Assembly (NCBI RefSeq): GCF_003399625.1
Contig: NZ_NBXA01000022.1
Coordinates: 1 to 64,000, forward strand
Source: Subtercola boreus
GTDB taxonomy: Bacteria > Actinomycetota > Actinomycetes > Actinomycetales > Microbacteriaceae
DNA: 64,000 nt
Reading direction: 5' to 3'
Positions 31,257 through 59,350 of this stretch are shown piece by piece. Each line of letters opens with the position of its first letter. The first letter of the stretch is position 1. Below the pieces are notes generated by a model. The model made no database searches, had not been told where the DNA came from, and worked only from the letters and a program-made list of their open reading frames with translations. The translations under genes and the position numbers were made by a program.

Positions 31257-32614
31257 GCGAGGTCCCGGGGAGACCCGCAGCCGCGCCCTCACCCGGTTCT
31301 TCGACACCCGCGCCACCCACGCGCAGCCGGTTCGTCGACCTCACCCCCCTGAAGCGGAGTCCCGCCTTCGCGAGGCTCTGGGGTGGCGCCGCCATCTCGG
31401 GCATCGGCGGCCAGATGACCATCGTCGCGGTGGGCCTGCACATCTACGACCTCACCCAGTCGACGTTCGCCGTGTCGCTGGTGGGCATCATCGCGCTGCT
31501 GCCGATGATCGTCTTCGGACTCTACGGCGGCATCCTCGCCGATTCGTTCGACCGTCGACTGGTCGCTCTGGTCGCCGGTGTCGTCGCCTGGGCGTCGACC
31601 GCCGTGCTGGCCTCCCTCGCGTGGCTGCGGATCGATGTGGTCTGGCCGTTCTACCTGCTCGCCACGGTCATCGCGGTCGCTGCCGTCGTGATCGGCTCCA
31701 CCCGCCAGTCGATCGTGCCGCGCCTCCTGCCGAAGGAACTGCTGCCGGCAGCATCGGCTCTGAACGGCATCAGCGTCGGGGCCCAGATCACCATCGGCCC
31801 CGCGCTGGCCGGTGTGCTGGTGGCGACGGTCGGATTCCAGTGGACCTACACCGTCGACGTCGTGCTCTTCGTGGCCGCCTTCTCAGGCATCGTCTCGCTG
31901 CCGAAGATCGTGCCGGAGGGCGACCTGAAGCGGCCCGGGTTCGCGTCGCTGGTGGACGGCATGCGCTTTCTGAAGAGCGCGCCGAACGTGCGCATGACGT
32001 TCATCCTGGACATCATCGCGATGACCTTCGGCCAGCCCCGGGTGCTGTTCCCGGCGGTCGGCGCCGTGCTGCTCGGCGGCGGGGCGATCACCGTGGGCAT
32101 CCTCACCGCGGCTGCGGCGATCGGGGCACTCTTCAGCAGCATCCTCTCGGGTCGCCTCGGGCACGTTCGCTGGCAGGGCCGCGCGGTCGGCAGCGCCATC
32201 ACGGTCTACGGCCTGTTCATAGCCGGGTTCGGCCTGGTGCTGCTGGTGTCGTCGGGAACAGGCCTCCACGGCATCACCGAGTCGATCACCGATGCGAACA
32301 TCCCGGCGCTCATCGTCGCTGCCGTCATGCTCGCCGGATCGGGAGCCGCCGACAATGTGAGCGCGATCTTCCGCAACACGATCCTCCAGGCGGCCGTGCC
32401 CGACGGAATGCGGGGACGCATCCAGGGCGTCTTCATGGTGGTCGTCACCGGCGGCCCGCGCCTCGGCGATGCCTACATCGGCATCCTGTCGGCGTTCGCC
32501 TTCCTGTGGATCCCCCCGCTGATGGGCGGCGTCTTCATCGTCGTGCTGGTTCTGGCGATCGTGCGGGGCAACAAGCGGTTCCGCCAGTACGACGCCCTGG
32601 CACCGACCCCCTGA
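31253..32614 (+). CDS. MFS transporter, EntS-like
   Basis: This 453-residue major facilitator has about 12 hydrophobic segments after a ~30-residue Pro/Ser-rich N-terminus. The PLKRSPAFARLWGGAAIS entry, YGGILADSFDRR loop (helix 2-3 motif A form), STRQSIVPRLLPKE and GMRGRIQGVFMVVVTGG blocks are typical of the EntS/MFS-3 group, whose known members export siderophores or drugs. Its GTG start overlaps the mini-GNAT stop. The partner oxygenase suggests the exported or imported compound could be a modified metabolite, but this is inference. The 3' end runs into a tandem repeat. Confidence 0.87.
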   Translation: MSEVPGRPAAAPSPGSSTPAPPTRSRFVDLTPLKRSPAFARLWGGAAISGIGGQMTIVAVGLHIYDLTQSTFAVSLVGIIALLPMIVFGLYGGILADSFDRRLVALVAGVVAWASTAVLASLAWLRIDVVWPFYLLATVIAVAAVVIGSTRQSIVPRLLPKELLPAASALNGISVGAQITIGPALAGVLVATVGFQWTYTVDVVLFVAAFSGIVSLPKIVPEGDLKRPGFASLVDGMRFLKSAPNVRMTFILDIIAMTFGQPRVLFPAVGAVLLGGGAITVGILTAAAAIGALFSSILSGRLGHVRWQGRAVGSAITVYGLFIAGFGLVLLVSSGTGLHGITESITDANIPALIVAAVMLAGSGAADNVSAIFRNTILQAAVPDGMRGRIQGVFMVVVTGGPRLGDAYIGILSAFAFLWIPPLMGGVFIVVLVLAIVRGNKRFRQYDALAPTP

Positions 32615-32652
32615 GTCGCAGACCCCCCGAGGCGCAGACCCCCTGAGCTGAT
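32605..32652 (+). repeat. 16-bp tandem repeat spanning the MFS stop codon (3 copies)
   Basis: Three 16 bp units (32605-32620, 32621-32636, 32637-32652) begin GACCCC(C/T) and share a CGCAGACCCCC core. The MFS stop codon lies in unit 1, and TGA recurs in unit 3. A hairpin terminator follows 23 bp later. Confidence 0.8.
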
Positions 32653-32674
32653 GGTGCGCTACCACCATGAAAAG

Positions 32675-32721
32675 AGGCTCGCCGCCCGGGGTCCTGTGGA
32701 CGGCCCGGTGGCGGCGAGCCT
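32675..32721. terminator. Bidirectional hairpin between MFS and FKBP genes
   Basis: A perfect 12 bp stem (AGGCTCGCCGCC at 32675-32686 with its complement at 32710-32721) separates the convergent MFS and FKBP genes. AAAAG precedes it, giving a CTTTT run on the minus strand, so it suits termination of the FKBP transcript best. Confidence 0.75.
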
Positions 32722-32744
32722 GACGTTGAAGATGTGGAGGGTGC

Positions 32745-33116
32745 CTAGCTGACGCCCTTGAGGTCGATGACGAAGATGAGGGTGCGGCCGGAGAGCGCGT
32801 GACCGCCACCCGCAGCACCGTAGGCCAGTGCGGGCGGAACGGTGAGCTTGCGGCGACCGCCGACCTTCATGCCGGGGATGCCCTGCTGCCAGCCCGCGAT
32901 CAGCTGACGGAGCGGGAAGTTGATCGAGGTACCACGGCTCCACGACGAGTCGAACTCGTCGCCGGATTCGTAGTCGACGCCGAGGTAGTGCACATCGACG
33001 GTCGAACCGGCGGTGGCTTCGGGGCCGTCGCCTTCGACGATGTCGAGGATTTCGAGACCCTCGGGGGCGGGGCCGTCGGGGGCGTCGAGTTCTGGCTTGG
33101 TGTTGAGATCTGTCAT
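32745..33116 (-). CDS. FKBP-type peptidyl-prolyl isomerase
   Basis: This is a 123-residue cytoplasmic FKBP. The catalytic fold markers are VDVHYLGVDYESGDEFDSSW, LIAGWQQGIPGMKVGGRRKL and VPPALAYGAAGGGH, ending GRTLIFVIDL. A short acidic/Pro N-terminal extension (to about residue 22) precedes it. It isomerises X-Pro bonds to assist folding. ATG 33116 was chosen. It starts 4 nt after the HelD stop and could be co-transcribed, but TTGGAT 6 nt before the ATG may be a weak promoter of its own. Confidence 0.92.
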   Translation of the reverse strand: MTDLNTKPELDAPDGPAPEGLEILDIVEGDGPEATAGSTVDVHYLGVDYESGDEFDSSWSRGTSINFPLRQLIAGWQQGIPGMKVGGRRKLTVPPALAYGAAGGGHALSGRTLIFVIDLKGVS

Positions 33117-33120
33117 AGCT

Positions 33121-35388
33121 CTATCCAACCACGTCAGCTTCGACCACGAAGGTCAGCCGCTGCGTCGGCCGGGTCATCGCCACGTAGAGCGCCGACGCAC
33201 CGCGCGGGATGTCGGTGAGGATGCGCTCGGGATCCACGATCACCACCGAGTCGAACTCCAGCCCCTTCGCCTCCTGCGGGGTCATCACCGCGACCTGACG
33301 GGTGAGCCCGGCCGCCCCGAGACCCACCTCGCCGGGGAGGGCCGCGCTGAGCGTGTCGAACGTGCTCTGCAGCAGGTCGGGCAGCACGATGACACCGGTC
33401 GTTCCGAGGGACGCGATCCGTCGGTCCGCCAGCACCGCTTCGAGAGTCGAGCGCACCGTCGTGATCGGCCACTCGCTCTCCCGCACCGACGTCGAGCGGG
33501 TCACGGGCAGGCCCCGACGCTCGGCCATCTCCTGGGCGGCCTCGGCGATCTGGGTGGGGGTCCGGTAGTTCACCGTCAACTCCTCGAGCCGCCAGCCCTC
33601 GCCCTGCTTCGTGCGGCCGACGAGCGGCGCGACGGCCTCGCTCCAGCTGCGCGCGCTCGATGCCGCGCTGGCCTGGGCGATGTCGCCGACGATCGTGAAC
33701 GAGCGGAGCGGCCCGCGGCGCCGGAGGAGGCGCCACTGCATCGGCGAGAGCTCCTGCGCCTCGTCGACCACGATGTGACCGTAGGTCCAGGTGCGGTCGG
33801 CCGCAGCCCGCTCGGCCGTGGTCGCCCGCGACGCCTGCTCGGCGAAGGTGTCGGCCAGATCTTCGGCGTGCACGAGCCCTTCGACATCCATGTTCCGGAT
33901 GGCGTTCTCGGCGTTCTCGACATCGCGCTTCCGCTGCTTCTTGGCCTCGCGGTCGACGGCGGCATTCCGGTCGTTGTGTTCACCCAGGTGCTCCGCTGCC
34001 TCGTCGAGCAGCGGCACATCGGAGACCGTGAACGGGGCGTCGCGGCCCCGGCGGAGGAGCGCGCGCTTCTCGGGACTCCAGTTCGGGGTGAGGCCGGCTA
34101 GCCACTGCGGGCGCGCATAGAGATCCTGCAGGAGCTTCTGCGGGGTGAGCGGAATCCACGCCGTGTTCAGCGCCACACGCACGTCGTACGCCGAACGGAG
34201 GTCTTCGCGGAGCATCCCGTAGTCGTCCTCGTCGACGGTGTTGCCGTGCGAACGCAGCTGCGCGGCGAGGGATCGGGTCATGTCGTTCAGAGCCGTCTTG
34301 ACGAAAGTGACCCGCGCCTCGTTGTACGGCTTCCGACTCTCGTTCGCCCGGGTGATGGCCGTGGCGATCACGTGCGGCTCGAGGGTGAGCGACTCGCCGT
34401 TCACGTCGAGAACCTGCGCCTCATTGGGCACCTGCTGGCGGGAGCGGATGGCACGCTCGATCAGCGACGCCATCTCGGTGGCGCCCTTGACCCTCGCGAC
34501 CTCGGGCGCATCTTCGACCGTCGCGTCGACTCCCGGGTAGAGCTGGCCCACGCTCGCGAGCACGACTCCGGTCTCGCCGAGGCTCGGCAGCACCGCCTCG
34601 ATGTACTGCAGGAACGCGCGCGACGGACCGACCACGAGCACTCCGGAGGAGCGCAGCCGATCGCGAAACGAATACAGCAGGTAGGCCGCCCGGTGCAGCG
34701 CCACAGCGGTCTTGCCCGTACCTGGTCCGCCCTGTACGACGAGCACGCCGGGCAGCTCCGAACGGATGATGCGATCCTGCTCGGCCTGGATCGTCGCCAC
34801 GATGTCGTGCATCCGGCCGGTGCGCTCGGCCGAGAGTGACGCCATCAGTGCACCCTCCCCCTGCAGCGCGCTCGCCTCGTCGTCGGTGATCGAGGCGCCG
34901 TCGAAGATCTCGTCCTCGATCTTCACGATCTTCCGGCCCCGGCTGAGCAGGTGCCGGCGGGACCGGATGCCCATCGGCGTGGCCGCCGTGGCCTGGTAGA
35001 AGGGGCCCGCCTGCGGCACGCGCCAGTCGAGCAGGATCGGCCTCAGGTTCTCGTCCCTGAGGCCGATGCGACCGATGTAACGGAAGCGCCCGTCGTCGTC
35101 GGTGTCGGCTGCGCCGGCAACGGTGCCTGCTCCACCATCGCCGCGCTCGGGCTCGGCCACCTCGAGGCGACCGAAAGCCAGGCGTTCGTCCACCTCGTTC
35201 AGCTGCACGATGCGGTCTTCGAACACCCTCGCGAAGGCATCGCGCTCTGAGCGACTCTGGTGGTTGCCCCCCACATCCTGGCGGTGCACCCGCTCGAGCT
35301 GCCGCTGGGCATCCGTCCGCAGCTCGTCGAGGCGCGCATAGAGAGTCGCAACGTAGTCACGCTCTCGATCAAGCTCGGAAGAAACCAC
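33121..35388 (-). CDS. helD: HelD-like RNA polymerase recycling ATPase (superfamily 1 helicase fold)
   Basis: This 755-residue protein has the HelD/HelR layout: an N-terminal coiled coil (about 1-75, ERDYVATLYARLDELR) that reaches the polymerase secondary channel, then DWRVPQAGPFYQAT, Walker A QGGPGTGKTAVALHRAA, a middle clamp, the VVDEAQELSPMQW box (motif II) and a final VMTPQEAKGLEFDSVVIVDP with MTRPTQRL. HelD-type proteins release stalled RNA polymerase from DNA; some actinobacterial forms (HelR) give rifamycin tolerance, but I see no rifamycin-associated element here. GTG 35388 has AGGGG upstream, and a TAGAAT promoter lies at 35418-35423. FKBP follows. Confidence 0.9.
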   Translation of the reverse strand: MVSSELDRERDYVATLYARLDELRTDAQRQLERVHRQDVGGNHQSRSERDAFARVFEDRIVQLNEVDERLAFGRLEVAEPERGDGGAGTVAGAADTDDDGRFRYIGRIGLRDENLRPILLDWRVPQAGPFYQATAATPMGIRSRRHLLSRGRKIVKIEDEIFDGASITDDEASALQGEGALMASLSAERTGRMHDIVATIQAEQDRIIRSELPGVLVVQGGPGTGKTAVALHRAAYLLYSFRDRLRSSGVLVVGPSRAFLQYIEAVLPSLGETGVVLASVGQLYPGVDATVEDAPEVARVKGATEMASLIERAIRSRQQVPNEAQVLDVNGESLTLEPHVIATAITRANESRKPYNEARVTFVKTALNDMTRSLAAQLRSHGNTVDEDDYGMLREDLRSAYDVRVALNTAWIPLTPQKLLQDLYARPQWLAGLTPNWSPEKRALLRRGRDAPFTVSDVPLLDEAAEHLGEHNDRNAAVDREAKKQRKRDVENAENAIRNMDVEGLVHAEDLADTFAEQASRATTAERAAADRTWTYGHIVVDEAQELSPMQWRLLRRRGPLRSFTIVGDIAQASAASSARSWSEAVAPLVGRTKQGEGWRLEELTVNYRTPTQIAEAAQEMAERRGLPVTRSTSVRESEWPITTVRSTLEAVLADRRIASLGTTGVIVLPDLLQSTFDTLSAALPGEVGLGAAGLTRQVAVMTPQEAKGLEFDSVVIVDPERILTDIPRGASALYVAMTRPTQRLTFVVEADVVG

Positions 35389-35417
35389 GTGTGCACCCCT
35401 AAAAAATCCGGCACACA

Positions 35418-35423
35418 ATTCTA
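35418..35423 (-). promoter_or_regulatory. Predicted -10 element of the helD gene
   Basis: TAGAAT on the minus strand lies about 30 nt before GTG 35388, leaving a short leader with an AGGGG ribosome site. It sits between the PrsW tail repeat and helD. Confidence 0.6.
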
Positions 35424-35452
35424 GCCCGGCCACGAAGGCCCGGCGGCCCGGC

Positions 35453-35506
35453 AGCGCTCGGCGGGCGAGTAGCGCTCGGTCGGCCAGTGGCGCTCAGCCG
35501 ACCAGC
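35453..35506 (-). repeat. 18-bp tandem repeat at the prsW 3' end (3 copies)
   Basis: Three 18 bp units (35489-35506, 35471-35488, 35453-35470 in reading order) follow one another exactly. The first contains the prsW stop codon (CTGGTCGGCTGA...), and in the second the TGA has become CGA. Units are about 70-80% identical. Confidence 0.75.
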
Positions 35507-36693
35507 AGAGCGGCCCGGTCGGACACGACGGCGGCCAGCAGGTCGGATTCCTGCTGCTCGACGCCGATCCGGTTGCGGCCCGTGATGAGGCGCTGACGGG
35601 TGAAGGCCAGGGCCGTCGAATCGTGGATGAACCGGCGCATCTGCTTTGTCTTCGCAACAGGCTGCCGGCGCGCCCAGGCCGTGGCCGACCGGCGCCCGCG
35701 GCCGGTCGAGAGCATGTCGACCTCGGCCGGCACGAACCAGCCCGCCTCCTGGTATTCGGTGAGCCGTGCGCGGGTGAGCCTCGCCTCCGCGCGGCGGAGG
35801 AGCACCACCCCCACGATCGCCACGGCGAAGAGCGGCACCTGGATGACCGCGTAGGCGAAGAGGAATCCTTCGATGCCCTCGGCGACGACCGTGCTTCCGT
35901 TCCAGAGGGCGTGCAGCAGCATCGCGCAGAACAGCCCCGCGAGGAACAGCCCGGCGACCGGCCAGAACCCGCGGCGCCGGGAGGCGAAACCGAGCGCGAT
36001 GCCGGTGCAGGAGGTGAACATGACGTGGGCGAACGGTCCCATGATGCCGCGGAGCGCGAACGTGACCCCCAGCGAGACTCCCCCGCCCTCGATCAGCGAC
36101 GATCCGAAGTAGAGGATGTTCTCGGTGAACGCGAAGCCTCCCGCGACGGTCGCGGCGTAGACCAGGCCGTCGACGGGACCGTCGAACGTGCGCCGCAGCA
36201 CGAGGAAGATGAGCAGCACGCCGAGGCCCTTCGCGCTCTCCTCGACGATCGGCGCCTGCACCACGGCGCCGAAGACGTCACTCGGCACGGCCTGCCCGTC
36301 GCTGGCCACATAGACGAGGATCTGCACGCCGGCGTCGACCAGCAGGGCGAGGGCCACGGATGCTGCGGCCCCCCAGAGGAACGCGAACCAGAGGGCGCCG
36401 CGGGGCTCGGGCTCCCAGCGGTCGATGAGCCGCACGACGAGCAGCACCACGGTGAGCGGAATGAGCGCGATGATTCCGCAGATGAGAGCGGCGACGGGCC
36501 CGATCGAGAGCATCACGTAGCCGAGCACCAACAGGAACACGAAACTGAGCACACACAGCACGATCACTCCCAGCACGAATCCGGTGCTGACCGGCTTCTT
36601 CGGGGTCGGTGCCGACCAGACCGGGGTGGGCGGCGCCTCGGCGGGGCTCGGTGAAACGGCAGGAGGCGTGCCTCCGACGGACGCAATCGTCAT
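35494..36693 (-). CDS. prsW: PrsW family intramembrane metalloprotease
   Basis: This 399-residue membrane protein has about eight to nine hydrophobic helices after a Pro-rich N-terminus. The protease motifs are in order: APIVEESAKG (EE-x-x-K), GFAFTENILY (F-x-x-x-E-N), the histidine in GPFAHVMFTS and LLHALWNGS. The fold is that of PrsW, which in Bacillus cleaves an anti-sigma factor; other members have unknown targets. A hydrophilic ~120-residue tail follows the membrane part. No anti-sigma gene is adjacent. GAGG lies 9-12 nt before the ATG. The gene ends in a tandem repeat. Confidence 0.9.
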   Translation of the reverse strand: MTIASVGGTPPAVSPSPAEAPPTPVWSAPTPKKPVSTGFVLGVIVLCVLSFVFLLVLGYVMLSIGPVAALICGIIALIPLTVVLLVVRLIDRWEPEPRGALWFAFLWGAAASVALALLVDAGVQILVYVASDGQAVPSDVFGAVVQAPIVEESAKGLGVLLIFLVLRRTFDGPVDGLVYAATVAGGFAFTENILYFGSSLIEGGGVSLGVTFALRGIMGPFAHVMFTSCTGIALGFASRRRGFWPVAGLFLAGLFCAMLLHALWNGSTVVAEGIEGFLFAYAVIQVPLFAVAIVGVVLLRRAEARLTRARLTEYQEAGWFVPAEVDMLSTGRGRRSATAWARRQPVAKTKQMRRFIHDSTALAFTRQRLITGRNRIGVEQQESDLLAAVVSDRAALLVG

Positions 36694-36762
36694 GATGATT
36701 CCTCAGATCAGATGTTATTCGAGCATACTGGGCGGCGGCAGGCCGCACGAGTCGTCGAACAA

Positions 36763-36768
36763 TAGAAT
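36763..36768 (+). promoter_or_regulatory. Predicted -10 element of the DUF6328 gene (leaderless start)
   Basis: TAGAAT ends 6 nt before ATG 36775. The intervening CGCAGG could serve as a very close ribosome site, but its spacing is too short for normal use. Confidence 0.55.
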
Positions 36769-36774
36769 CGCAGG

Positions 36775-37314
36775 ATGAGCGAACCCGTGCACGAACCCGC
36801 ACCCGAATCGGAATCGGAGACGAGCAAGCTCGAACGCAACTGGACCGAATTGCTGCAGGAGCTTCGCGTCATCCAGACGGGCACCCAGATCCTCACCGGA
36901 TTCCTGCTCACCCTCCCGTTCCAGGCACAGTTCCCGTCGCTCACGCCCTTCCAGAGAACCCTGTATCTCTGTCTCGTCATCGGAGCGGCCCTGGCCACCG
37001 CCCTCGCGCTCGCACCGGTGAGCGTGCACCGGGCTCTCTTCCGGCTCGGCGACAAGCGCCAGATCGTCGATACCGGCAACGGCCTGGCCATCGTCACTCT
37101 GGCGGTGGTCGCACTCGTGCTCACCGGAACGATAACCTTCGTCTTCGACGTGGTGGTCGGTGACACGGCTGCGCTGGTGGTCGGCAGTGCGGCCCTGGTC
37201 GTGCTCGCCTCCCTCTGGGTGGTTCTGCCGCTCAGGGTGAGGTCGCGTGGAAGAACGGCGAACAGCGGTTCCGGTCACGACGGGACCGGGCACAGCGGAA
37301 CCGGGCGCACGTGA
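36775..37314 (+). CDS. DUF6328 family membrane protein
   Basis: This 179-residue protein has an acidic N-terminus, an amphipathic NWTELLQELRVIQTGTQIL segment and four hydrophobic helices (ending about residue 155). The first block followed by FLLTLPFQAQF matches the DUF6328 family, common in actinobacteria and of unknown function. A Gly/Thr/His-rich tail is encoded by a 15 bp tandem repeat just before the stop. The next gene, yihY-like, overlaps by 4 bp, so both membrane proteins are made together. Confidence 0.85.
   Translation: MSEPVHEPAPESESETSKLERNWTELLQELRVIQTGTQILTGFLLTLPFQAQFPSLTPFQRTLYLCLVIGAALATALALAPVSVHRALFRLGDKRQIVDTGNGLAIVTLAVVALVLTGTITFVFDVVVGDTAALVVGSAALVVLASLWVVLPLRVRSRGRTANSGSGHDGTGHSGTGRT
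37267..37311 (+). repeat. 15-bp tandem repeat at the DUF6328 3' end (3 copies)
   Basis: Three in-frame 15 bp units (37267-37281, 37282-37296, 37297-37311) encode GSGHD, GTGHS and GTGRT directly before the stop codon. The start of the next gene lies in the same bases. Confidence 0.8.
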
Positions 37315-38393: not shown

Positions 38394-38428
38394 GAGACAG
38401 ACATCGGCGGGCGGAGGCAGGAACGGGG

Positions 38429-39946: not shown

Positions 39947-39956
39947 AGTACTCGCG

Positions 39957-41363: not shown

Positions 41364-41369
41364 CCTCTC

Positions 41370-41375
41370 ATCGTA
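41370..41375 (-). promoter_or_regulatory. Predicted -10 element of the aldehyde dehydrogenase gene
   Basis: TACGAT on the minus strand ends 6 nt before ATG 41363. It lies in the 69 bp gap after the upstream esterase gene. Confidence 0.5.
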
Positions 41376-41432
41376 GGACGGTTCGCTCTGCAGGGGGCTG
41401 TGGATGCTCGGGACGCCGCCGCGCGGGAGCTC

Positions 41433-48239: not shown

Positions 48240-49193
48240 ATGAGTTCTGACGCGGAGCAGGGCGGTTCGCCCGGGGGTGCTGGGAGCGCCGCCTGGGCGA
48301 TCGGGCACGTGCCGTTCGCCCGTGGGTTCTACGCCGGCAGGCGCGTGCGCGGCGTCGAGGTTCGCGAGGAGACCCTGGCCGCCCCCTTCGACACCGTTCG
48401 CCTGAAACGCCACGAACGCGTGGGCGGTGCGGATGTCGGCGGTGCCGGGGCAGCCGCTCCCCTCGTGGTGTTCTTCCCCGACGCCGAAGCCGTCTCCGCG
48501 CGTGGGCGGAGAAGCGGCGACTGGCTGGCCGCTTCGCTCGCCCGGCGGCTGCCGGTCGTGGTGGTGACGGTGCAGATTCCCGCTGCGGTGCTCGACGACA
48601 GGGAGGCGGCGTTCGAAGCACTGCTCCGTGCGCTCGGGGCGGGCGGTGGCGGCAGCAGCGGCAGCGGTGCAAGCGGCGGCAGTGCCAGCGGCGCCGGCGG
48701 CGACCCGAAGATCGCGCTCGTCGGCGTGGGCACGGGCGGAGCCCTGGCCGCCCGCACCGCGATGCGGGCCAGGGACACCCGCGACGTGCCCGATAGCGCG
48801 GTTTCGGTTTCCGAGGTGCCCGGCGGGCCGCGCATCCAGAGGCAGGCGCTCATCTCCCCCGATTTCGCGCTGCTCACCGGGCCTCCCGCCACGGAGGACG
48901 CCCTCCGCACGTCGCTCGTGGCCCGGCTCTCCGAACTCCCCGCGACACTCGTGCAGCAGTACGGCGATCGTGCAGCGAGCCGAAGCGACCCCTCCCAGAA
49001 TCTCGTCGAGCTGCTCCGCGAATCGGGGGTGGCCGTGCGCTCCATCGCCTACCCGCCCCAGCGCCTCGACTGGACAGAGTACCCGCGTGCAGTACGGAGC
49101 TCCAGCCGTGCACTCGACGACCTCGTCGCGTTCCTCGAGCGGGGTATCGTTACCGACGGATTCGACGTCGTACCGGCGTGGAACCTGCACTGA
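48240..49193 (+). CDS. Alpha/beta-hydrolase-like protein without a serine nucleophile
   Basis: This 317-residue protein resembles an alpha/beta-hydrolase core: a first strand APLVVFFPDAEAV, a second RLPVVVVTVQIP, and the elbow position IALVGVGTGGALAA. In that elbow the usual G-x-S-x-G reads G-V-G-T-G, so the nucleophile Ser is missing. A Gly/Ser linker of ~18 residues separates the helix from the elbow (48643-48700). A C-terminal helix ends in PAWNLH. It may bind a ligand or partner rather than act as an enzyme. I do not recognise a named family. Its stop codon begins a 17 bp tandem repeat. Confidence 0.65.
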   Translation: MSSDAEQGGSPGGAGSAAWAIGHVPFARGFYAGRRVRGVEVREETLAAPFDTVRLKRHERVGGADVGGAGAAAPLVVFFPDAEAVSARGRRSGDWLAASLARRLPVVVVTVQIPAAVLDDREAAFEALLRALGAGGGGSSGSGASGGSASGAGGDPKIALVGVGTGGALAARTAMRARDTRDVPDSAVSVSEVPGGPRIQRQALISPDFALLTGPPATEDALRTSLVARLSELPATLVQQYGDRAASRSDPSQNLVELLRESGVAVRSIAYPPQRLDWTEYPRAVRSSSRALDDLVAFLERGIVTDGFDVVPAWNLH

Positions 49194-49258
49194 TCCCCAC
49201 ACCGCCCTGATCCCCGCACCGCCCTGATCCCCACACCGCCCTGATCCCCGCACCTCAA
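49191..49258 (+). repeat. 17-bp tandem repeat starting at a stop codon (4 copies)
   Basis: Four 17 bp units start at 49191, 49208, 49225 and 49242, each beginning TGATCCCC. Units 1 and 3 are identical, and units 2 and 4 share CCCCGCACC, so a 34 bp dimer has been duplicated. The first TGA is the stop of the upstream gene. The KimA-like gene begins 12 bp later. Confidence 0.9.
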
Positions 49259-49269
49259 CCGCACCGAGG

Positions 49270-51264: not shown

Positions 51265-51278
51265 TCCGGGAACAGGGC

Positions 51279-52126: not shown

Positions 52127-52234
52127 CGTGACCCCACTCGACGGGCGGCCACAGTGCGCCGCGGAAGGCTGCAGAACGTGCCCCCAGCCTAGTGCGAGGG
52201 TCCGCATCCCGGCGGCGGGGCGGGGCGGGGGCGC

Positions 52235-53812
52235 TCAGGCGCCGGGCAGCCACTTCTTCGCGGTGAGGAACTCGCCGCGGGCGCGGGCGTAGTCCTCGAT
52301 CGCGCGGTCGGCGCGCTGCTGCTCCAGCGCGTGCAGACGGCCGTACCCGAAGGTGTTCTCGCCGGCCTCGGCGGCGGCTCCGGCAGTGGCGTACAGCAGC
52401 CGCTGGAGCGCCACGCTGTCGCGGTACTCCCCCAGCGCATCCTGCACCCGCTCCGCGGCGGAGGCGAGGCGCGCGACCTTCTCGCCGAACACCGCCGTTC
52501 CCGCGAACGCGGTGTCGCCCGAGGTCACCGCCTCGATGCCGAACCGCAGCCGCCGGGCGGCTTTCCGCACCACGTGCACCCGGGCATTCCACTCGTCGGG
52601 GTTGCCCGCCTTCGCAACGGCCTTCATCCGTCTCTTCACCCGCCGGAAGTCCGCGGTGATCGGCCGGCCGAGCACCTTCGTGGCGCGCCCGGCCGATCTC
52701 TTGCCGAGCCGGGCTGCGTCGCCCGTGCCGGCGGCGAACGCTTCGAGAGAATCGAGCAGCCGGAAGTACCGTGCGCTCGACAGGATGCGCTGCAGGTAGC
52801 CGAGCGAGCGCTGGTACTCCGCCTCCTTGTCGGAGACGAGGCGCGCGAGCACCGCTTCGTGCATACGCTTGTTCGCCTGTGAGCGCACGAGATTCCGCGC
52901 CCTGTCGTGCATGACCTGCGGGTCGCGGGTGTCGCCGAGCACGGTTCCGAGTTCGGCGAGCTCCCGCTCGAGCCGCTTCGCCTCGTCGGAGTCCAGCACC
53001 GACCGGTAGGTGGCGAGGATGCTCCGCAGCCGCCGCACGGAGGAGCGCATCGTGTGCACCGCACCCGCTTCGTCTTGGCGAACGAGTGGATCGGCCTGCT
53101 TCAGCCGTTCCGTCTGCACAGCGATCGCGGCACGGAGCACATCACCCGCCGAGCTCTTGCCGCTGAGCGGTCGCCGGGGTTCCCGCTCCCCCAACCGCTC
53201 GCGGCCGAGCGCGTGGGCGAGCTTCGAGACGCTCGCCGACGGCCGGGCACCAGCCGTCTCGAGCTTCTTCTCGATGGCGTCGAGCAGCAGAGCGCGCTTC
53301 CGCGGCGAGCCGGGAGCGTCGTCGGTGAGTTCGACCTCCCATTCGCGCCAGACCCGCAGCTGGGCGGTGGCGACATCCCCGGCCGACACCAGGTCGTCGG
53401 CGATCTCGGCGAGCGCCACGTCGTCGCCGTCGTGGAGGCAGGTCGTCGTGCGGGTCGTGGTCAGTCGGGCGACAGGAGCGAGCGGATGATCGCGCACGTG
53501 CACCAGCACGAGGTCGAGCACGGCCTCGGGGATCGGTCCGTCGTCGCCGAGCGGCCAGTGCAGCTCCAACCGGCCCTCGTCGCCCGGCAGTTTGATGTGC
53601 CAGCCCTCGTCGGAGCCGCCCTCGCGGCGCCGGAGCACGATCCGCTGGGCTGCGAGATGGAGTTCCGCGGTGTCGTAGTAGACCGCGTGCAGCGTCACCG
53701 TCTCGGGGTCGGAGACCCGCGCGACCTGGGCCACCCCGGTCAGATCCGGCACGACGGTCTGGTCGTCGACGTCGTACTTCCGCTCGATCTCGATGTGCAC
53801 CTGATGATTCAT
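52235..53812 (-). CDS. CYTH and CHAD domain protein
   Basis: This is a 525-residue protein. The N-terminal CYTH domain (about 1-210) has HIEIERKYDV (the E-x-E-x-K motif), VYYDTAEL, RIVLRRREGG and HIKLPG strands, which line a triphosphate tunnel. The C-terminal CHAD domain (about 225-515) is a helical bundle with histidines and arginines: VHTMRSSVRRLRSILATYR and VHVVRKAARRLRFGIEAV. CHAD domains bind polyphosphate. CYTH-CHAD fusions are thought to bind or hydrolyse inorganic polyphosphate or triphosphate. It stands alone between the broken channel and the S9 peptidase; 52127-52234 shows nothing I can assign. Confidence 0.92.
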   Translation of the reverse strand: MNHQVHIEIERKYDVDDQTVVPDLTGVAQVARVSDPETVTLHAVYYDTAELHLAAQRIVLRRREGGSDEGWHIKLPGDEGRLELHWPLGDDGPIPEAVLDLVLVHVRDHPLAPVARLTTTRTTTCLHDGDDVALAEIADDLVSAGDVATAQLRVWREWEVELTDDAPGSPRKRALLLDAIEKKLETAGARPSASVSKLAHALGRERLGEREPRRPLSGKSSAGDVLRAAIAVQTERLKQADPLVRQDEAGAVHTMRSSVRRLRSILATYRSVLDSDEAKRLERELAELGTVLGDTRDPQVMHDRARNLVRSQANKRMHEAVLARLVSDKEAEYQRSLGYLQRILSSARYFRLLDSLEAFAAGTGDAARLGKRSAGRATKVLGRPITADFRRVKRRMKAVAKAGNPDEWNARVHVVRKAARRLRFGIEAVTSGDTAFAGTAVFGEKVARLASAAERVQDALGEYRDSVALQRLLYATAGAAAEAGENTFGYGRLHALEQQRADRAIEDYARARGEFLTAKKWLPGA

Positions 53813-53865
53813 GCCCGTTGCCCCGACCCTCTTGCCTTCGACTCCGCCTTACACGCTAACTCAAC

Positions 53866-53871
53866 TACGGT
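53866..53871 (+). promoter_or_regulatory. Predicted -10 element of the S9 peptidase gene (leaderless start)
   Basis: TACGGT ends 6 nt before ATG 53878; there is no Shine-Dalgarno sequence. Confidence 0.58.
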
Positions 53872-53877
53872 GGATGC

Positions 53878-56157
53878 ATGTCACTGCAGCATCCCCCGGT
53901 CGCCCGGAAGGCCCCCACCGAACGCATCCATCACGGCGACACGGTGATCGACCACTACGAATGGCTTCGCGAGAAGGACGACGAGAAGGTGCTCGCACAC
54001 CTCACCGCCGAGAACGCCTGGGCCGAGCAGCAGACGGCGCACCTCGAACCCGTTCGACAGGCTGTCTTCGACGAGATCAAGGCCCGCACCCTCGAGACCG
54101 ACCTGTCGGTTCCCGTGAGGAGCGGCTCCTGGTGGTACTACACCCGCACGGTCGAGGGCAGCCAGTACGGCATCCACGCCCGCGCGCCCATCGCCGGCAC
54201 CGACGACTGGACCCCGCCCCGCCTCGAACCCGGCGTTGCCGTTCCCGGCGAGGTGGTCGTGCTCGACGACAACGTCGAGGCGGAGGGCACCGACTTCTAC
54301 TCCCTCGGGAGCTTCGACACGAGCACGGATGGCCGGCTGCTCGCCTACGCCGTGGACACGGTGGGCGACGAGCGCTACACACTCCGCATCCGCGACCTCG
54401 ACACCGGCGAGAATCTGCCGGACGTCGTGGAGAACACCGCGCCCGGAGCCACCTTCACCCCCGACGGGCGCTTCGTCTTCTACCCGACCGTCGACGAGGC
54501 GTGGCGCCCCGACACCATCTGGCGGCACCGGGTCGGCAGTGACGGGACCGACGTCGTCGTCTTCACCGAACCCGACGAGCGCTACTGGCTCGGTATCGGT
54601 CTCACCCGCAGCGAGAAGTACCTGCAGCTCGACCTCGGCTCGAGCGTCACCAGTGAGACCCACCTGCTCGACACAGCCGACCCCGAGGGCGACTTCGTAC
54701 TCGTCTGGCCGCGGGTGGAGGGCATCGAGTACTTGGTCGAGCACGCCGTCATCCCGGGGGCAGGCGACAGCGCAGGCGACCGCCTCCTCGTCACCCACAA
54801 TGCGAATGGTGAGAACTTCGAGCTGCTGGAGGTGGCTCCGGATGCTCCGCTCGACGAGTCCCGCTGGCGTACCGTGCTGGCGGCGAGCGACGACGTGCGG
54901 CTCGAGAGCGTCGACGCCTTCGAGACCCACCTCAGCGTGGAGTACCGGCGCGACGCGCTGACCCGCGTGGCGGTCATCCGGCTGGATGCTGCCACGGACT
55001 CAGCGCCGGGCGCCGCGGGCGCGGTGGGCAGCAGCAGCCGAGGGCTCCTCCCCGGCTACGGCCCTCTCGAGGAGCTCCCCTTCACCGAGCCGCTCTTCTC
55101 CGTCGGCACCGGCGGCAACCCGGAGTGGACCCAGCCGACCCTCCGCGTCGGCTTCACCTCGTTCGTGACCCCCTCCACCGTCTACGACTACGTTCTCTCC
55201 ACCGGTGACCTCCGCCAGCTCAAGCAGCAACCGGTGCTCGGCGGCTACGACAGCAGCGCCTACACCCAGCGCCGCGAATGGGCGGAGGCCGACGACGGCA
55301 CGCTCATCCCGATCTCGCTCGTCGAGCGCCGGGATCTCGTGCGCACCGGTGCCCCCGCTCCCCTCGTTCTCTACGGCTACGGATCGTACGAGGCGAGCAT
55401 CGACCCGTCGTTCTCGGTCGCCCGGCTCTCGCTCCTCGATCGCGGCGTGGTCTTCGCCATCGCCCATGTGCGCGGCGGCGGCGAACGCGGACGCTGGTGG
55501 TACGAGCAGGGCAAGAAGCTCGCGAAACGCAACACGTTCAGCGACTTCATCGCCGCGGCGCACCACCTCGTCGACGCCGGCTACACCACGCCCGACCGGC
55601 TCGTCGCGCAGGGCGGAAGCGCCGGCGGGCTGCTGATGGGCGCGATCGCCAACGATACGCCAGAACTCTTCGCGGGCATCCTCGCGCAGGTGCCGTTCGT
55701 CGACGCTCTCACCTCGATCCTCGACCCGTCGCTGCCGCTCACCGTGATCGAATGGGACGAGTGGGGCGATCCCCTCCACGACGCCGGGGTCTACGCCTAC
55801 ATGAAGTCGTACTCCCCCTACGAGAACGTGCGGGACGGCATCCGGTACCCGAAGATCCTCGCGGTGACCAGCCTGAACGACACGCGGGTGCTGTACGTGG
55901 AACCGGCCAAGTGGGTCGCAAGGCTGCGCGAAGCGGGAGCGGATCCGCTGCTGAAGATCGAGCTCACAGCCGGGCACGGCGGGGTGAGCGGGCGCTACGA
56001 GCGCTGGAAGGAGACCGCCTACGAGTACGCGTGGATGCTCGATGTGCTCGGTGCACTCAGCGCACCCGGCGCCCAGGCCCCCGGCGCACAGGCACCCCGT
56101 GCCCAGGCCCCCGCAGGCGCAACCCCTGTTCAGGGGACACCGAGTACGGAAGCATAG
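53878..56157 (+). CDS. S9 family prolyl oligopeptidase / oligopeptidase B
   Basis: This 759-residue serine peptidase has an N-terminal HGDTVIDHYEWLREKDD start (S9A/OpdB type), a beta-propeller to about residue 420, and a catalytic domain. The nucleophile lies in AQGGSAGGLLMGA, the Asp in LNDTRVLY and the His in AGHGGVSGRYERW. The enzyme would cleave short peptides after basic or Pro residues; propeller residues do not fix the subtype. There is no signal peptide. The tail is Ala/Pro/Gln-rich and encoded by a 15 bp tandem repeat. A maltokinase gene follows 36 bp later. Confidence 0.92.
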   Translation: MSLQHPPVARKAPTERIHHGDTVIDHYEWLREKDDEKVLAHLTAENAWAEQQTAHLEPVRQAVFDEIKARTLETDLSVPVRSGSWWYYTRTVEGSQYGIHARAPIAGTDDWTPPRLEPGVAVPGEVVVLDDNVEAEGTDFYSLGSFDTSTDGRLLAYAVDTVGDERYTLRIRDLDTGENLPDVVENTAPGATFTPDGRFVFYPTVDEAWRPDTIWRHRVGSDGTDVVVFTEPDERYWLGIGLTRSEKYLQLDLGSSVTSETHLLDTADPEGDFVLVWPRVEGIEYLVEHAVIPGAGDSAGDRLLVTHNANGENFELLEVAPDAPLDESRWRTVLAASDDVRLESVDAFETHLSVEYRRDALTRVAVIRLDAATDSAPGAAGAVGSSSRGLLPGYGPLEELPFTEPLFSVGTGGNPEWTQPTLRVGFTSFVTPSTVYDYVLSTGDLRQLKQQPVLGGYDSSAYTQRREWAEADDGTLIPISLVERRDLVRTGAPAPLVLYGYGSYEASIDPSFSVARLSLLDRGVVFAIAHVRGGGERGRWWYEQGKKLAKRNTFSDFIAAAHHLVDAGYTTPDRLVAQGGSAGGLLMGAIANDTPELFAGILAQVPFVDALTSILDPSLPLTVIEWDEWGDPLHDAGVYAYMKSYSPYENVRDGIRYPKILAVTSLNDTRVLYVEPAKWVARLREAGADPLLKIELTAGHGGVSGRYERWKETAYEYAWMLDVLGALSAPGAQAPGAQAPRAQAPAGATPVQGTPSTEA
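56068..56112 (+). repeat. 15-bp tandem repeat in the S9 peptidase tail (3 copies)
   Basis: Three in-frame 15 bp units (56068-56082, 56083-56097, 56098-56112) encode GAQAP, GAQAP and RAQAP. They lie in the non-conserved tail, 14 codons before the stop. Confidence 0.8.
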
Positions 56158-56193
56158 GCTGAGCACTCTTGCTGGCCACGACGAAAGCGAATC

Positions 56194-57690
56194 ATGACCG
56201 ACACAGCACCCGGTGACCTCTCAGGCCCCGATTCAGCGCCCTTCGACAATGCCCTCATCGATTCCCTGACCGAATGGATGCCCCGGCAGCGCTGGTTCGG
56301 TGGCAAGACCACCAGCCCTGCGCTGCGGCTGATCGGCAGCTTCGACCTGCCGCACGGCGACGCGGAGGTGCGGGTCACGACGTTCCTCGTGCTCGACGAG
56401 GGCGGCCAGCAGTCCCGCCTCTACCAGGTGCCCCTCACCGTGCGGAGCGAGCGCGCTCCCGAACTCGAGGCCTCCCTGATCGTCGCCGTGAGCGCGGAGC
56501 CGGGCTCCGACAGCCCGGACAGTGACGTTCCGGTCAACGCCGTGACCGTGGGCGACAAGGGCGCTCACACCCAGTTCGTCTACGACGGAACCCACGACCT
56601 CGCCTACTCGGGCGCCCTCCTCGACCTGATCGCCCGCGACCAGGCGAGCGACGGCACCGGCGGCGCGACGGCCACGGGGCGGGCCCAGGTCTCCGGGCAT
56701 CCCCTCACCGTGACCCACGCCAGGGTGCTGAGCGGTGAGCAGTCGAACTCGTCGATCATCATGACGGTGACGACCGCGGAGGGCGCGGAACATCGGCCCG
56801 TCATCTGCAAGGTGTTCCGGGTGCTCCACCACGGCAACAACCCCGACGTGGTGCTGCAGTCCGCCCTGGCGAAGGCCGGTTCCACCCGGGTGCCCGCCTC
56901 GATCGGAAGCGTCGTCGGCCAGTGGCACGACTCGCGGATGCCCGACGGGCGCACCTCGGGGCATCTCGCCTTCGCGCAGGAGTTCCTGCCGGGCGTCGAG
57001 GATGCCTGGCGCGTGGCCCTCGACGCGGTCGAGGCCGGACGCTCGTTCGTCGCCGAGGCCGCCGCTCTCGGCGAGGCCACCGCGGAGGTGCACGAGACGC
57101 TCGCCGCCGTGCTGCCGACCGTCGCCCCCTCCGACGATCTCGTCGCCGGTGTCATGACGAGCATGCGCCGTCGTCACGGCGGAGCCGTACGCGAGGTGCC
57201 GTCGCTCGCCGAGCACAACGACGCCATCGAGCGGGTCTTCGAGGCCGCCGAGGCGAGCCCCTGGCCGAATCTCCAGCGGATCCACGGCGACTACCACCTC
57301 GGCCAGGTGCTTCACACGCCGAACGGCGGCTGGGTGCTGGTGGACTTCGAGGGCGAGCCGCTCCGGCCGATGGTCGAGCGGAGCCAGCCCGACCTCGTGC
57401 TCCGCGACATCGCGGGCATGCTCCGTTCCTTCGACTACGTCGCCGGTTCCTACGCGCAGACCCACCCCGGCGAGTCCGCGACGCAGTGGGCGCTGGATGC
57501 CCGGGCCGCCTTCCTCGACGCGTACATCGCCCGCGCGGGGCTCGACCTCCGCGCGAATCGTGCCCTCCTCGACGCCTTCGAGATCGACAAGGCGCTCTAC
57601 GAGGCGATCTACGAGGTGCGGAACCGCCCCACCTGGGTCTCGATCCCCACCACCGCGGTCGCCCGCCTGGCGAACCGCCCCCGCGGCTAG
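56194..57690 (+). CDS. mak: Maltokinase (Mak/Pep2-like), orphan
   Basis: This 498-residue aminoglycoside-phosphotransferase-fold kinase has the cap domain start SLTEWMPRQRWFGGK (about 24-38), the catalytic loop IHGDYHLGQVLH (Asp in HGDYH), the metal site VLVDFEGEPLRP, and the C-terminal LDAFEIDKALYEAIYEVRNRP signature of actinobacterial maltokinases. These phosphorylate maltose to maltose-1-phosphate for the GlgE glucan pathway, usually fused to or beside treS. No treS, glgE or glgB is in this window, so it stands apart or serves another sugar, such as glucosamine. Transcript start: TAGGCT overlaps the upstream stop. Confidence 0.85.
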   Translation: MTDTAPGDLSGPDSAPFDNALIDSLTEWMPRQRWFGGKTTSPALRLIGSFDLPHGDAEVRVTTFLVLDEGGQQSRLYQVPLTVRSERAPELEASLIVAVSAEPGSDSPDSDVPVNAVTVGDKGAHTQFVYDGTHDLAYSGALLDLIARDQASDGTGGATATGRAQVSGHPLTVTHARVLSGEQSNSSIIMTVTTAEGAEHRPVICKVFRVLHHGNNPDVVLQSALAKAGSTRVPASIGSVVGQWHDSRMPDGRTSGHLAFAQEFLPGVEDAWRVALDAVEAGRSFVAEAAALGEATAEVHETLAAVLPTVAPSDDLVAGVMTSMRRRHGGAVREVPSLAEHNDAIERVFEAAEASPWPNLQRIHGDYHLGQVLHTPNGGWVLVDFEGEPLRPMVERSQPDLVLRDIAGMLRSFDYVAGSYAQTHPGESATQWALDARAAFLDAYIARAGLDLRANRALLDAFEIDKALYEAIYEVRNRPTWVSIPTTAVARLANRPRG

Positions 57691-57708
57691 CAGAGCAGCT
57701 CCCTGAAG

Positions 57709-59214
57709 TCAGACCCTCAGGTCGCGGGCGGTGGGGCCCTCGAGGAGCGTGCCGTCGGGCGCGAAACGGGAGCCGTGGAGGGGACAGTCCCAGCTCGTCT
57801 CGGCGGAGTTCCAGGTGAGCACCCCGCCGAGGTGCGGACAGACGGCCGAGACCTGGCAGGTGCGACCCCCGACGGTCGATGTTCCCGTCGGATGGATGCC
57901 TGACCGCCCGATCAGTCCCTCCCCCTCGGCGGGGAGCGGAAGGGCATCCGTCGACGGACCGGCGAGCACACCCGCCCACCCCTTCAGCGCCCACCAACCC
58001 GTTGCAGCGTTCGCGCCGATGCCCGACGCCATCGCGGCCGGCAGCGTGGCCCGGTGGTGAAGCGTCTTCGCCCAGGACGGCGAGTCGCCCGAGAGGTCGC
58101 TGAACAGCGTGAGCGCGGCCTGCACGGCGTTGGTCATCCCCCACTTGTCGTAGCCGCTCGCGAAGTAGATGCGCCCCCGGCCGCGCGGCAGGTACCCCAC
58201 AAAGGGAACCCGGTGCGGCGTCTCGTAGTCCTGGGCGCTCCACGAGTGCGTGGGTACGGCACCCGGGAAGTGCCGTGCGGTCCACTCGTGCAGGTCGTCG
58301 ACCAGCCGCTGGGTGTCGCCGGCGCGGCCGACCGGATGCCCGTTCCCGCCGACGATCAGCGTCGAGGTCTCCCCACCGGCACCTGGCACCGTGCGGATCG
58401 AGCGGCTCGGCGCATCCACCGACAGGTACATGCTCTGAGGCAACGCGCCACTCTCCGGCACCTCGTACGACCCCGCATACGACCGCTGCGCCCGCAGCTT
58501 CGCGAAATACAGCCCGCGGTCGAGGATCGGCACCCCCGTGGTGAGGTGCACGTGCGCACCGAAGACCGTTCCACGCGAGGTGCGCACCTCGGCCGGATCG
58601 GATGCCCGCACCCCCGTCACCCGGGTGTTCTCGACGATGACGCCGCCGAGCGCCCGAACGTCCGCCGCCAGCGCGGTGAGAACGTCGAGCGGGTCGAACT
58701 GCGCCTGGTCGGTGAGCACGACGGCGCCGAACGTCTCGAAGGGCAGGTCGGTGCTGTCGACGAGCCGCACATCGAGCCCGGATGCCCGGGCGATCCGGAA
58801 CTCCCGCCCCACCGTCTCGACACCCGCAGCGGTTCCCGCGTAACTGACCGCGTCGCGGCGCTGCACGGCGACACCGCTCGAGGAGGCGTAGTCGAGCATC
58901 CACTCCTGGCCGGCGCGGTTGGCGTCCACATAGGCCTGCACGATCGATTGGTACGTGTGCGCCCTGATCTTCTGCAGTTGACTCCCTTGCAGGAGCGACA
59001 GCTTTGCGGTCGAACGGCCGGTTGCGACCGCACCGATCGAGCGCGACTCCAGCACCGCGACCCGTTTGCCCGTTCTCGCGAACAGCAGCGCGGTCACGAG
59101 ACCCGTCAACCCCGCCCCCACCACGACCTCGTCGTAGCGGGCATCCGGTTCGAACGGGTCTGTCGTGATCCCAGCACCGGTTTCAGAACGGGAGTCGAAC
59201 CACAGTGACGTCAT
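57709..59214 (-). CDS. FAD-dependent oxidoreductase with C-terminal Rieske domain
   Basis: This is a 501-residue fusion. The first ~400 residues form a DAO-type flavoprotein: VVVGAGLTGLVTALLFAR (nucleotide motif, about 30-47), GRSTAKLSLLQG and a late IYFASGYDKWGMTNAV. The last ~80 residues form a Rieske [2Fe-2S] domain with the ligands in CPHLGG (Cys, His) and CPLHGSRF (Cys, His). This architecture is shared with YhfW-like proteins, whose function is not settled; electron transfer between flavin and iron-sulfur cluster is implied. TAGCCT ends 6 nt before the ATG. It is convergent with mak and follows the corA tail repeat. Confidence 0.9.
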   Translation of the reverse strand: MTSLWFDSRSETGAGITTDPFEPDARYDEVVVGAGLTGLVTALLFARTGKRVAVLESRSIGAVATGRSTAKLSLLQGSQLQKIRAHTYQSIVQAYVDANRAGQEWMLDYASSSGVAVQRRDAVSYAGTAAGVETVGREFRIARASGLDVRLVDSTDLPFETFGAVVLTDQAQFDPLDVLTALAADVRALGGVIVENTRVTGVRASDPAEVRTSRGTVFGAHVHLTTGVPILDRGLYFAKLRAQRSYAGSYEVPESGALPQSMYLSVDAPSRSIRTVPGAGGETSTLIVGGNGHPVGRAGDTQRLVDDLHEWTARHFPGAVPTHSWSAQDYETPHRVPFVGYLPRGRGRIYFASGYDKWGMTNAVQAALTLFSDLSGDSPSWAKTLHHRATLPAAMASGIGANAATGWWALKGWAGVLAGPSTDALPLPAEGEGLIGRSGIHPTGTSTVGGRTCQVSAVCPHLGGVLTWNSAETSWDCPLHGSRFAPDGTLLEGPTARDLRV

Positions 59215-59220
59215 CGCCTC

Positions 59221-59226
59221 AGGCTA
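59221..59226 (-). promoter_or_regulatory. Predicted -10 element of the FAD-Rieske gene (leaderless start)
   Basis: TAGCCT on the minus strand ends 6 nt before ATG 59214. It sits between the corA tail repeat and the gene; no ribosome site is present beyond GAGG within the 6 nt gap. Confidence 0.58.
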
Positions 59227-59260
59227 CGCCGCAGCCCTGATCTCGTCGGCCCCTTGCGCT

Positions 59261-59350
59261 CAGAGCCAGCCCTGCCTTCAGAACCAACCTTGCGCTCAGA
59301 GCCAGCCGAACAATCAGAGCCAGCCGGACAATCAGAGCCAGCCGCGCTTC
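59261..59350 (-). repeat. 18-bp tandem repeat at the corA 3' end, each unit with an in-frame stop (5 copies)
   Basis: Units start every 18 bp at 59261, 59279, 59297, 59315 and 59333 (+ strand coordinates), with CAGAGCCAGCC as the core. In the corA frame each unit reads G-W-(L/F)-stop, so the corA C-terminus and stop codon have been copied five times. A sixth partial unit (59251-59260) is recognisable. Confidence 0.9.

What the first reader, a model, noticed from the sequence alone, without database searches (positions are those of the whole stretch)
32605..59350. Six genes end in short tandem repeats of 15-18 bp, four of which contain the stop codon
Seen directly: MFS (32605-32652, 16 bp x3), PrsW (35453-35506, 18 bp x3), DUF6328 (37267-37311, 15 bp x3), the degenerate hydrolase (49191-49258, 17 bp x4), S9 peptidase (56068-56112, 15 bp x3) and CorA (59261-59350, 18 bp x5). 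Four units contain the stop codon, and in CorA every unit repeats it in frame. All are at gene 3' ends and on both strands. Unit length is constant (15-18) but sequence is unrelated, so this is not one mobile element. Inference: a local copying process (slippage, or repair at transcript ends) acts preferentially at 3' ends, or backup stops and tail variation are tolerated there. I do not know of a description of this pattern.
Basis: partly seen in the sequence, partly recalled or inferred. Interest (0 to 1): 0.72.

Follow-up and report, generated by a model that had tools for sequence, protein, structure and literature searches.

The report
Tandem repeats tolerated after stop codons
In a bacterium of the genus Subtercola, short stretches of DNA appear to be copied head-to-tail again and again, and the copies are found mainly just after the ends of genes, most likely because copying a stop codon leaves the protein unchanged.

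Summary
The six arrays are real and four cross the stop codon. In 1.17 Mb of this Subtercola genome (28% of it), intergenic arrays within 60 nt of a stop and of no start number 68 against 10.5 expected from uniform placement; relocated within intergenic gaps up to 600 bp, 76 of 124 sit near stops against 35.7 (sd 4.9), and three congeners agree. Best explanation: short tandem duplications arise genome-wide at a species-dependent rate and selection filters them. A duplication spanning a stop keeps the protein intact in its first copy ("stop shield"); one spanning a start does not (63 crossings over 1039 stops, 8 over 1227 starts). Backup-stop selection is not supported: copied stops are kept no better than neighbouring triplets. 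Between species, array presence in convergent gaps looks independent, but in co-directional gaps the two closest species share arrays more than chance. A 1.71-fold stop-proximity excess and a C-over-G bias on the sense strand remain unexplained, so a role in Rho-dependent termination or a weak mutational hotspot is not excluded.

The parts
32605..32647 (+). 16-bp x 2.7 array crossing the stop of the MFS gene (CDS ends 32614)
   Evidence: by eye G009 has three copies with other spacers, the other four congeners compared do not have it in this form
35441..35508 (-). 18-bp x 3.8 degenerate array crossing the stop of the PrsW-protease gene (CDS 35494-36693, minus strand)
   Evidence: by eye G009 carries near-perfect 18-bp copies, G001 none; no hit in the other three congener stretches
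37262..37306 (+). 15-bp x 3 repeat in the last codons of the DUF6328 gene (36775-37314)
   Evidence: the tail differs in G009, G001 and G005
49190..49254 (+). 17-bp x 3.8 array (34-bp higher-order period) starting at the stop of the alpha/beta hydrolase gene (CDS ends 49193)
   Evidence: by eye G009 lacks it but has another duplication further downstream, and G001 has a different 18-bp duplication that contains the stop
56065..56113 (+). 15-bp x 3.3 repeat (five-residue units) in the tail of the S9 peptidase gene (53878-56157), ending 44 nt before its end
   Evidence: by eye the tail is shorter and not repeated in G009, G005, G007 and G004
59252..59344 (-). 18-bp x 5 array crossing the stop of the CorA gene (59332-60456, minus strand); TGA in frame in every unit
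   Evidence: G009 has five downstream copies with other spacers; by eye 10 of 11 congeners lack this array, though G006 has a different short repeat further downstream
29484..29516 (.). 13-bp x 2.5 array between two convergent genes, within 60 nt of both stops; not in the finding

Best explanation
Short tandem duplications (commonly 12-18 bp), followed by copy-number change and point mutation, arise throughout the genome of this Subtercola and several congeners at a species-dependent rate, and selection decides where they are seen. Inside genes mostly in-frame units survive; near starts they are rare. A duplication whose unit contains a stop codon is harmless whatever its length, because the first copy still ends the protein at the same residue and the extra copies fall in untranslated DNA (a 'stop shield'); DNA between convergent genes is similarly free. 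This gives arrays with unrelated units, on both strands, at gene 3' ends. Shown here: positional enrichment, frame pattern, stop/start asymmetry, differences between species at the same gene ends, covariation of coding and post-stop densities within Subtercola. Inferred: that the formation step is replication slippage or template switching, and that the position bias is mainly selective tolerance.
For: (1) Intergenic arrays near a stop only: 68 against 10.5 expected; near both stop and start 11 against 4.1; near a start only 21 against 13.6; far from both 65 against 45.7 (G000). (2) Relocation inside gaps up to 600 bp, centre within 60 nt of a stop: G000 76 of 124 versus 35.7 (sd 4.9), G001 28 of 52 versus 13.1, G009 42 of 66 versus 17.6, G010 19 of 31 versus 9.0. 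(3) 63 array crossings over 1039 stops, 8 over 1227 starts, in four genomes. (4) Stop-crossing arrays whose period is not a multiple of three begin within one period upstream of the stop in 40 of 49 cases and never beyond two periods, as the shield predicts. (5) Periods of 10 bp or more are multiples of three in 466 of 534 coding arrays and 119 of 249 intergenic ones. (6) Array density in coding DNA and in the 50 nt after stops covaries over seven Subtercola genomes: Pearson 0.92, p = 0.003; Spearman 0.79, p = 0.036. (7) In 28 orthologous convergent gaps, 21 have an array in at least one of three species and 2 in all three, about what independence gives. (8) 0 of 40 near-stop arrays without C- or G-domination share an exact 12-mer. 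(9) Convergent gaps of 200-600 bp: 17 sides with more array bases in 0-50 than in 50-100 nt, 17 the reverse, 52 ties; co-directional 20, 8 and 86.
Against: With distance to the next start held, stop proximity still raises array density 1.71-fold (bootstrap 1.38-2.26); within convergent gaps of 40-600 bp the ratio is 2.10 (1.41-3.56), though gap length is not held there; convergent gaps are twice as dense near the stop (0.250) as co-directional gaps whose start is over 120 nt away (0.124). Arrays are C-over-G on the sense strand in 149 against 75 cases, array-free segments in 1078 against 894. In co-directional gaps G000 and G009 share array presence in 9 of 83 gaps where independence would give about 2 (counts), so turnover is not complete there. 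Length differences fit insertion only in part: array in G000 not G001, median +45 but mean -27.7 (13 gaps); array in G001 not G000, median -49; array in G009 not G000, median -43; array in G000 not G009, median only +9 (9). Only 6 of 50 polarised insertions of 6 nt or more between G000 and G009 were simple adjacent duplications. Outside Subtercola the pooled groups do not follow one line: coding/post-stop densities are 0.0253/0.075 (Streptomyces group), 0.0157/0.042 (mixed), 0.0108/0.043 (Microbacterium group), 0.0081/0.097 (Agreia/Rathayibacter). The seven Subtercola genomes are related, so their correlation is not of independent points. No mutation rate was measured.
Confidence: 0.68

Rival explanations
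1. Functional 3'-UTR elements: the arrays are expanded C-rich, unstructured RNA modules that load the Rho factor or otherwise help end transcription, so selection favours them after stops and between convergent genes.
For: Sense-strand composition of arrays is C 0.48, G 0.34 in convergent and C 0.45, G 0.31 in co-directional gaps, against 0.36/0.33 and 0.34/0.32 in array-free segments; no such bias in divergent gaps (13 versus 19). Density is highest in convergent gaps. Sharing of arrays by G000 and G009 in co-directional gaps.
Against: In convergent gaps presence is not shared between species beyond chance. Of the four stop-crossing arrays in the window, three occur in related form in one congener (G009) only and one in none, by eye, with 2 to 11 congeners compared per gene. 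Array-free DNA after stops already has C-rich over G-rich 20-mers 825 to 342, against 491 to 117 in arrays, so part of the bias is substrate. CorA and PrsW units are not markedly C-rich.
Confidence: 0.17
2. A local mutational hotspot at transcript ends: terminating or stalled RNA polymerase, convergent transcription or its collision with replication provokes short duplications there.
For: Residual 1.71-fold stop effect and the two-fold excess of convergent over co-directional gaps; the 14-mer duplication profile peaks 0 to 18 nt after the stop.
Against: Coding and post-stop densities covary within Subtercola, similar range of unit lengths inside genes, no preference for the stop-proximal 50 nt within convergent gaps of 200-600 bp.
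Confidence: 0.1
3. Selection for backup stop codons against read-through.
For: CorA units all keep an in-frame TGA.
Against: Copied stops are identical in 56 of 100 downstream copies, no better than neighbouring triplets (62 of 100, 48 of 76, 32 of 49). Of 38 gene-array pairs that include the whole stop, 20 have a period that is not a multiple of three. Gene-tail positions of downstream copies are no better conserved than spacer positions: mismatches 104 of 413 versus 83 of 413.
Confidence: 0.02
4. Assembly or gene-calling artefact.
For: G000 is a draft of 95 contigs and genes were called by my own script, not checked against annotation.
Against: G001 (two contigs) and G010 (one contig) show the same pattern; the six host genes each match a Pfam family over its cut-off.
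Confidence: 0.03

Closest known systems
Tandem repeats of Borg extrachromosomal elements (PMC9879509; start of abstract, passages and section 9 seen)
   Same: Many different units (18-21 nt in the passages seen); fast turnover between relatives; units in genes all divisible by three, only 14-38% of intergenic ones; [quoted passage not shown] the authors infer one formation mechanism for genic and intergenic repeats.
   Different: Here a bacterial chromosome; the window's units are degenerate rather than perfect; C-rich rather than A-rich; a measured concentration at stops and between convergent genes.
GGGAATC repeats of Xanthomonas and GGGGA(C/T)T repeats of Nostoc (PMC4692102; passages seen)
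   Different: One G-quadruplex-forming motif of 7 nt there; unrelated units, mostly 12-18 bp, here.
TAACTGA direct repeats of marine Beggiatoaceae (PMC4679880; passages seen)
   Same: Intergenic direct repeats, some overlapping stop codons.
   Different: One motif, mostly just upstream of start codons, where the present arrays are rarest.
Bacterial minisatellites / VNTR loci (recalled, general knowledge)
   Same: Head-to-tail units of about 10-100 bp.
   Different: I do not recall them being described as concentrated at stop codons; copy-number variation within a species was not tested here.

Membership tests
Bacterial minisatellites (tandem repeats of 10-100 bp) | Head-to-tail copies of a unit of about 10-100 bp | tested here: met
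   (some near-stop arrays have shorter units)
Bacterial minisatellites (tandem repeats of 10-100 bp) | Copy number varies between strains of one species | not testable with these tools
   one genome per species is held; between species, presence and copies differ
Borg-type tandem repeats | Unrelated units; in-frame in genes, free in intergenic DNA | tested here: met
   466 of 534 coding and 119 of 249 intergenic periods are multiples of three; unit comparison
Borg-type tandem repeats | Perfect units without substitutions | tested here: not met
   the six window arrays have 73-96% matches at their basic period, though some arrays elsewhere are perfect
Motif-specific intergenic repeats (Xanthomonas GGGAATC, Beggiatoaceae TAACTGA) | One shared motif across loci | tested here: not met
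   37 of 89 near-stop arrays share a 12-mer with another, against a mean of 41.7 in shuffles; the eight commonest shared words shown are made of C and G only; 0 of 40 without C- or G-domination share one
Mobile or dispersed elements (REP, MIRU; names recalled) | Same sequence at many places in the genome | tested here: inconclusive
   a 26-base pattern from the hydrolase array occurs in the whole genome only in that array (2 places); no shared words among 40 arrays; other units were not searched genome-wide
Intrinsic terminators | RNA hairpin more stable than composition gives | tested here: not met
   126 array 40-mers, median z 0.07, against -0.03 in 400 sampled array-free ones, p = 0.55; but z below -2 in 11.9% versus 7.0%
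Rho utilisation sites | C-over-G, unstructured sense RNA | tested here: inconclusive
   C over G in 149 against 75 arrays, but also in 1078 against 894 array-free segments
Rho utilisation sites | Termination depends on Rho | not testable with these tools
   no transcript data

The most novel reading that the evidence does not exclude
In some Subtercola lineages gene ends are continually rebuilt by tandem duplication of the last codons, the stop codon and the first untranslated bases, and the resulting C-rich repeat RNA serves as a fast-evolving, sequence-independent Rho-loading or transcript-insulating element, above all between convergent genes, where about half of the gaps of 40-300 bp carry an array (78 of 151 in four genomes).
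Probability: 0.15. Interest if true: 0.78.

Novelty: new variant of a known kind. Interest (0 to 1): 0.45.

Why it matters
If right, it gives a simple rule: a tandem duplication spanning a stop is silent for the protein, one spanning a start usually is not, so gene 3' ends come close to recording a genome's raw duplication rate. Post-stop arrays would then be a sequence-only readout of duplication mutagenesis, would help explain why distances between convergent genes drift, and point to related species (high: G000, G001, G009, G010; low: G004, G007) in which the cause of a changed duplication rate could be mapped. These are inferences.

Tried and rejected
Loss of the nuclease NucS (mismatch repair in actinobacteria, recalled) as cause of the high rate: the family is found in 12 of 12 Subtercola genomes, high and low alike. 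Conserved gene tail with variable spacer, suggested by CorA and MFS: not general, mismatches 104 of 413 in tail phases and 83 of 413 in spacer phases. Backup stops: not supported. Hairpins inside arrays: no general excess. Counting simple adjacent duplications in three-way alignments of 133 of 143 orthologous gaps: 6 of 50 polarised insertions qualify; the alignment may split degenerate arrays, so this is weak either way.

Literature: nine searches were answered. In the rows listed (capped) I saw no title or abstract start describing heterogeneous stop-spanning tandem repeats in bacteria; the library lacks most subscription journals. Subtercola with tandem repeat gave 0 papers.

Weak points of method: genes were called by a self-written hexamer model, not checked against annotation. 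The excess of multiples of three among intergenic arrays (119 of 249) suggests that some coding DNA was missed. The own-genome sample is not random: three large contigs (or most of them), the window, and the first 20 kb or the whole of 15 others; two contigs under 700 bp were left out. The orthologous gaps include 30 nt of gene on each side, and 143 of 266 gaps tried were found in both other genomes. In one search, 73 of the 80 loci were used (L135, L139, L142-L145, L176 left out) and one Arthrobacter locus (L168) was counted both in the Streptomyces group and in the mixed group. The seven values correlated were typed. The Fisher contrast (78 of 151 versus 1 of 27 convergent gaps) left out G005 (1 of 5).
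Full report
WHERE IT IS. The window lies in a 4.12-Mb genome of 95 contigs of the genus Subtercola: the CorA-bearing contig of the congener G009 has the length and identity of a contig titled S. boreus P27479 (165,473 bases, 98%), and that of G008 those of one titled S. boreus P27979 (176,122 bases, 89%). The CorA protein is 98% identical in G009 and 94% in G001.

THE OBSERVATION. All six arrays exist. Four cross the stop; two (DUF6328, S9) are 15-bp repeats inside the gene, just before it. Pfam supports the gene names MFS, PrsW, DUF6328, alpha/beta hydrolase, S9 peptidase and CorA.

GENOME SCALE. Of 513 arrays, 68 fall in intergenic DNA near a stop only, against 10.5 expected; near a start only 21 against 13.6; far from both 65 against 45.7. 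Periods of 12-24 bp that are not multiples of three stand out most: 24 against 1.6. Arrays cover 9-12% of intergenic bases 0-60 nt after stops, 6-10% from there to about 240 nt and 2-4% from 260 to 400 nt; upstream of starts 3-6%, but 0.9% in the last 20 nt; coding DNA 1.5%. A profile of repeated 14-mers rises at the stop, peaks at 0-18 nt (5-6.5% of stops), falls below 1% at 66-72 nt and lies at 1-3% beyond; inside genes it is mostly 0.2-1%. Relocating arrays within intergenic DNA gives the same answer in four genomes.

WHICH GAPS. Of gaps 60-250 bp long, convergent ones touch an array in 31 of 58 cases, co-directional in 37 of 214, divergent in 6 of 100; over all gap lengths 44 of 155, 64 of 470 and 20 of 158. 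A cross-table over four genomes shows two effects: nearness to a start halves density (0.49, 0.37-0.62), nearness to a stop raises it 1.71-fold (1.38-2.26). Within gaps of 200-600 bp the stop-side 50 nt hold more array than the next 50 nt in 17 convergent cases and fewer in 17; in co-directional gaps 20 and 8 (p = 0.036).

THE STOP SHIELD. There are 63 array crossings over 1039 stops and 8 over 1227 starts in four genomes. Stop-crossing arrays with out-of-frame periods begin within one period upstream of the stop in 40 of 49 cases, none beyond two. This is expected if the first copy must still carry the original end of the protein. The copied stop itself is not favoured: identical in 56 of 100 copies, against 62 of 100 for the triplet before it.

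ONE PROCESS, SEVERAL SPECIES. Coding arrays have units mostly of 9, 12, 15, 18 and 21 bp with the peak at 15; intergenic units are commonest at 15-18 and fall off above 18. Density differs strongly between congeners: 0-50 nt after stops G000 0.107, G009 0.167, G001 0.133, G010 0.163, G005 0.075, G004 0.037, G007 0.028, with coding densities 0.0146, 0.0142, 0.0149, 0.0181, 0.0120, 0.0063, 0.0045 (correlation). Outside the genus this line does not hold: Streptomyces group 0.075 after stops and 0.0253 in coding DNA, Agreia/Rathayibacter 0.097 and 0.0081, Microbacterium group 0.043 and 0.0108, mixed others 0.042 and 0.0157. Presence of NucS does not explain the differences.

TURNOVER. Of 266 gaps tried, 143 were found in G009 and G001 as well. 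Convergent gaps carry an array in at least one species in 21 of 28 and in all three in 2 of 28, near independence. Co-directional gaps do so in 27 of 83 and 4 of 83, and there G000 and G009 share arrays in 9 gaps where about 2 are expected; divergent gaps 7 of 32 and 0 of 32. By eye, the CorA array is absent from 10 of 11 congeners and has other spacers in G009; the hydrolase end has a different stop-containing duplication in G001.

WHAT REMAINS. Arrays are C-over-G on the sense strand beyond array-free DNA (149:75 against 1078:894), and convergent gaps are denser than co-directional gaps far from a start. A Rho-related function or a small hotspot could account for this. RNA folding shows no general excess of structure.

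COMPARISON. It works most like the tandem repeats of Borgs (PMC9879509; start of abstract, passages and section 9 seen), which also have many different units, in-frame in genes and free between them, but are perfect and A-rich. The stop-proximal placement resembles the GGGAATC repeats of Xanthomonas (PMC4692102; passages seen), which share one motif. I file it as a new variant of ordinary bacterial minisatellites: the parts are known; the concentration on stops, the stop/start asymmetry and the difference in load between congeners I did not see described in the listings of nine searches.

Noticed in passing
window 32675-32721: A long GC-rich inverted repeat follows the MFS array and looks like a terminator hairpin; the array sits between stop and hairpin. 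Seen by eye, not folded.
   Followed up: no
window 48240-49193: The hydrolase aligns over its whole length only in G009 (83%); in G001, G005, G007 and G004 the single alignment kept covers about the last 120 residues, which would fit a decayed or fast-changing N-terminal part.
   Followed up: partly
Subtercola G007 and G004 versus G000, G001, G009 and G010: Convergent gaps of 40-300 bp hold an array in 1 of 27 versus 78 of 151 cases: a strong difference in repeat load within one genus, cause unknown.
   Followed up: partly
G000, G009 and G001, intergenic DNA 0-60 nt after stops: The sense strand has more C than G even without arrays (0.359 and 0.322).
   Followed up: partly
L034 (G006), downstream of the CorA gene: A different short repeat, of about 11 bp by eye, lies some 40 nt after the CorA stop in G006, unrelated to the arrays of G000 and G009.
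   Followed up: no
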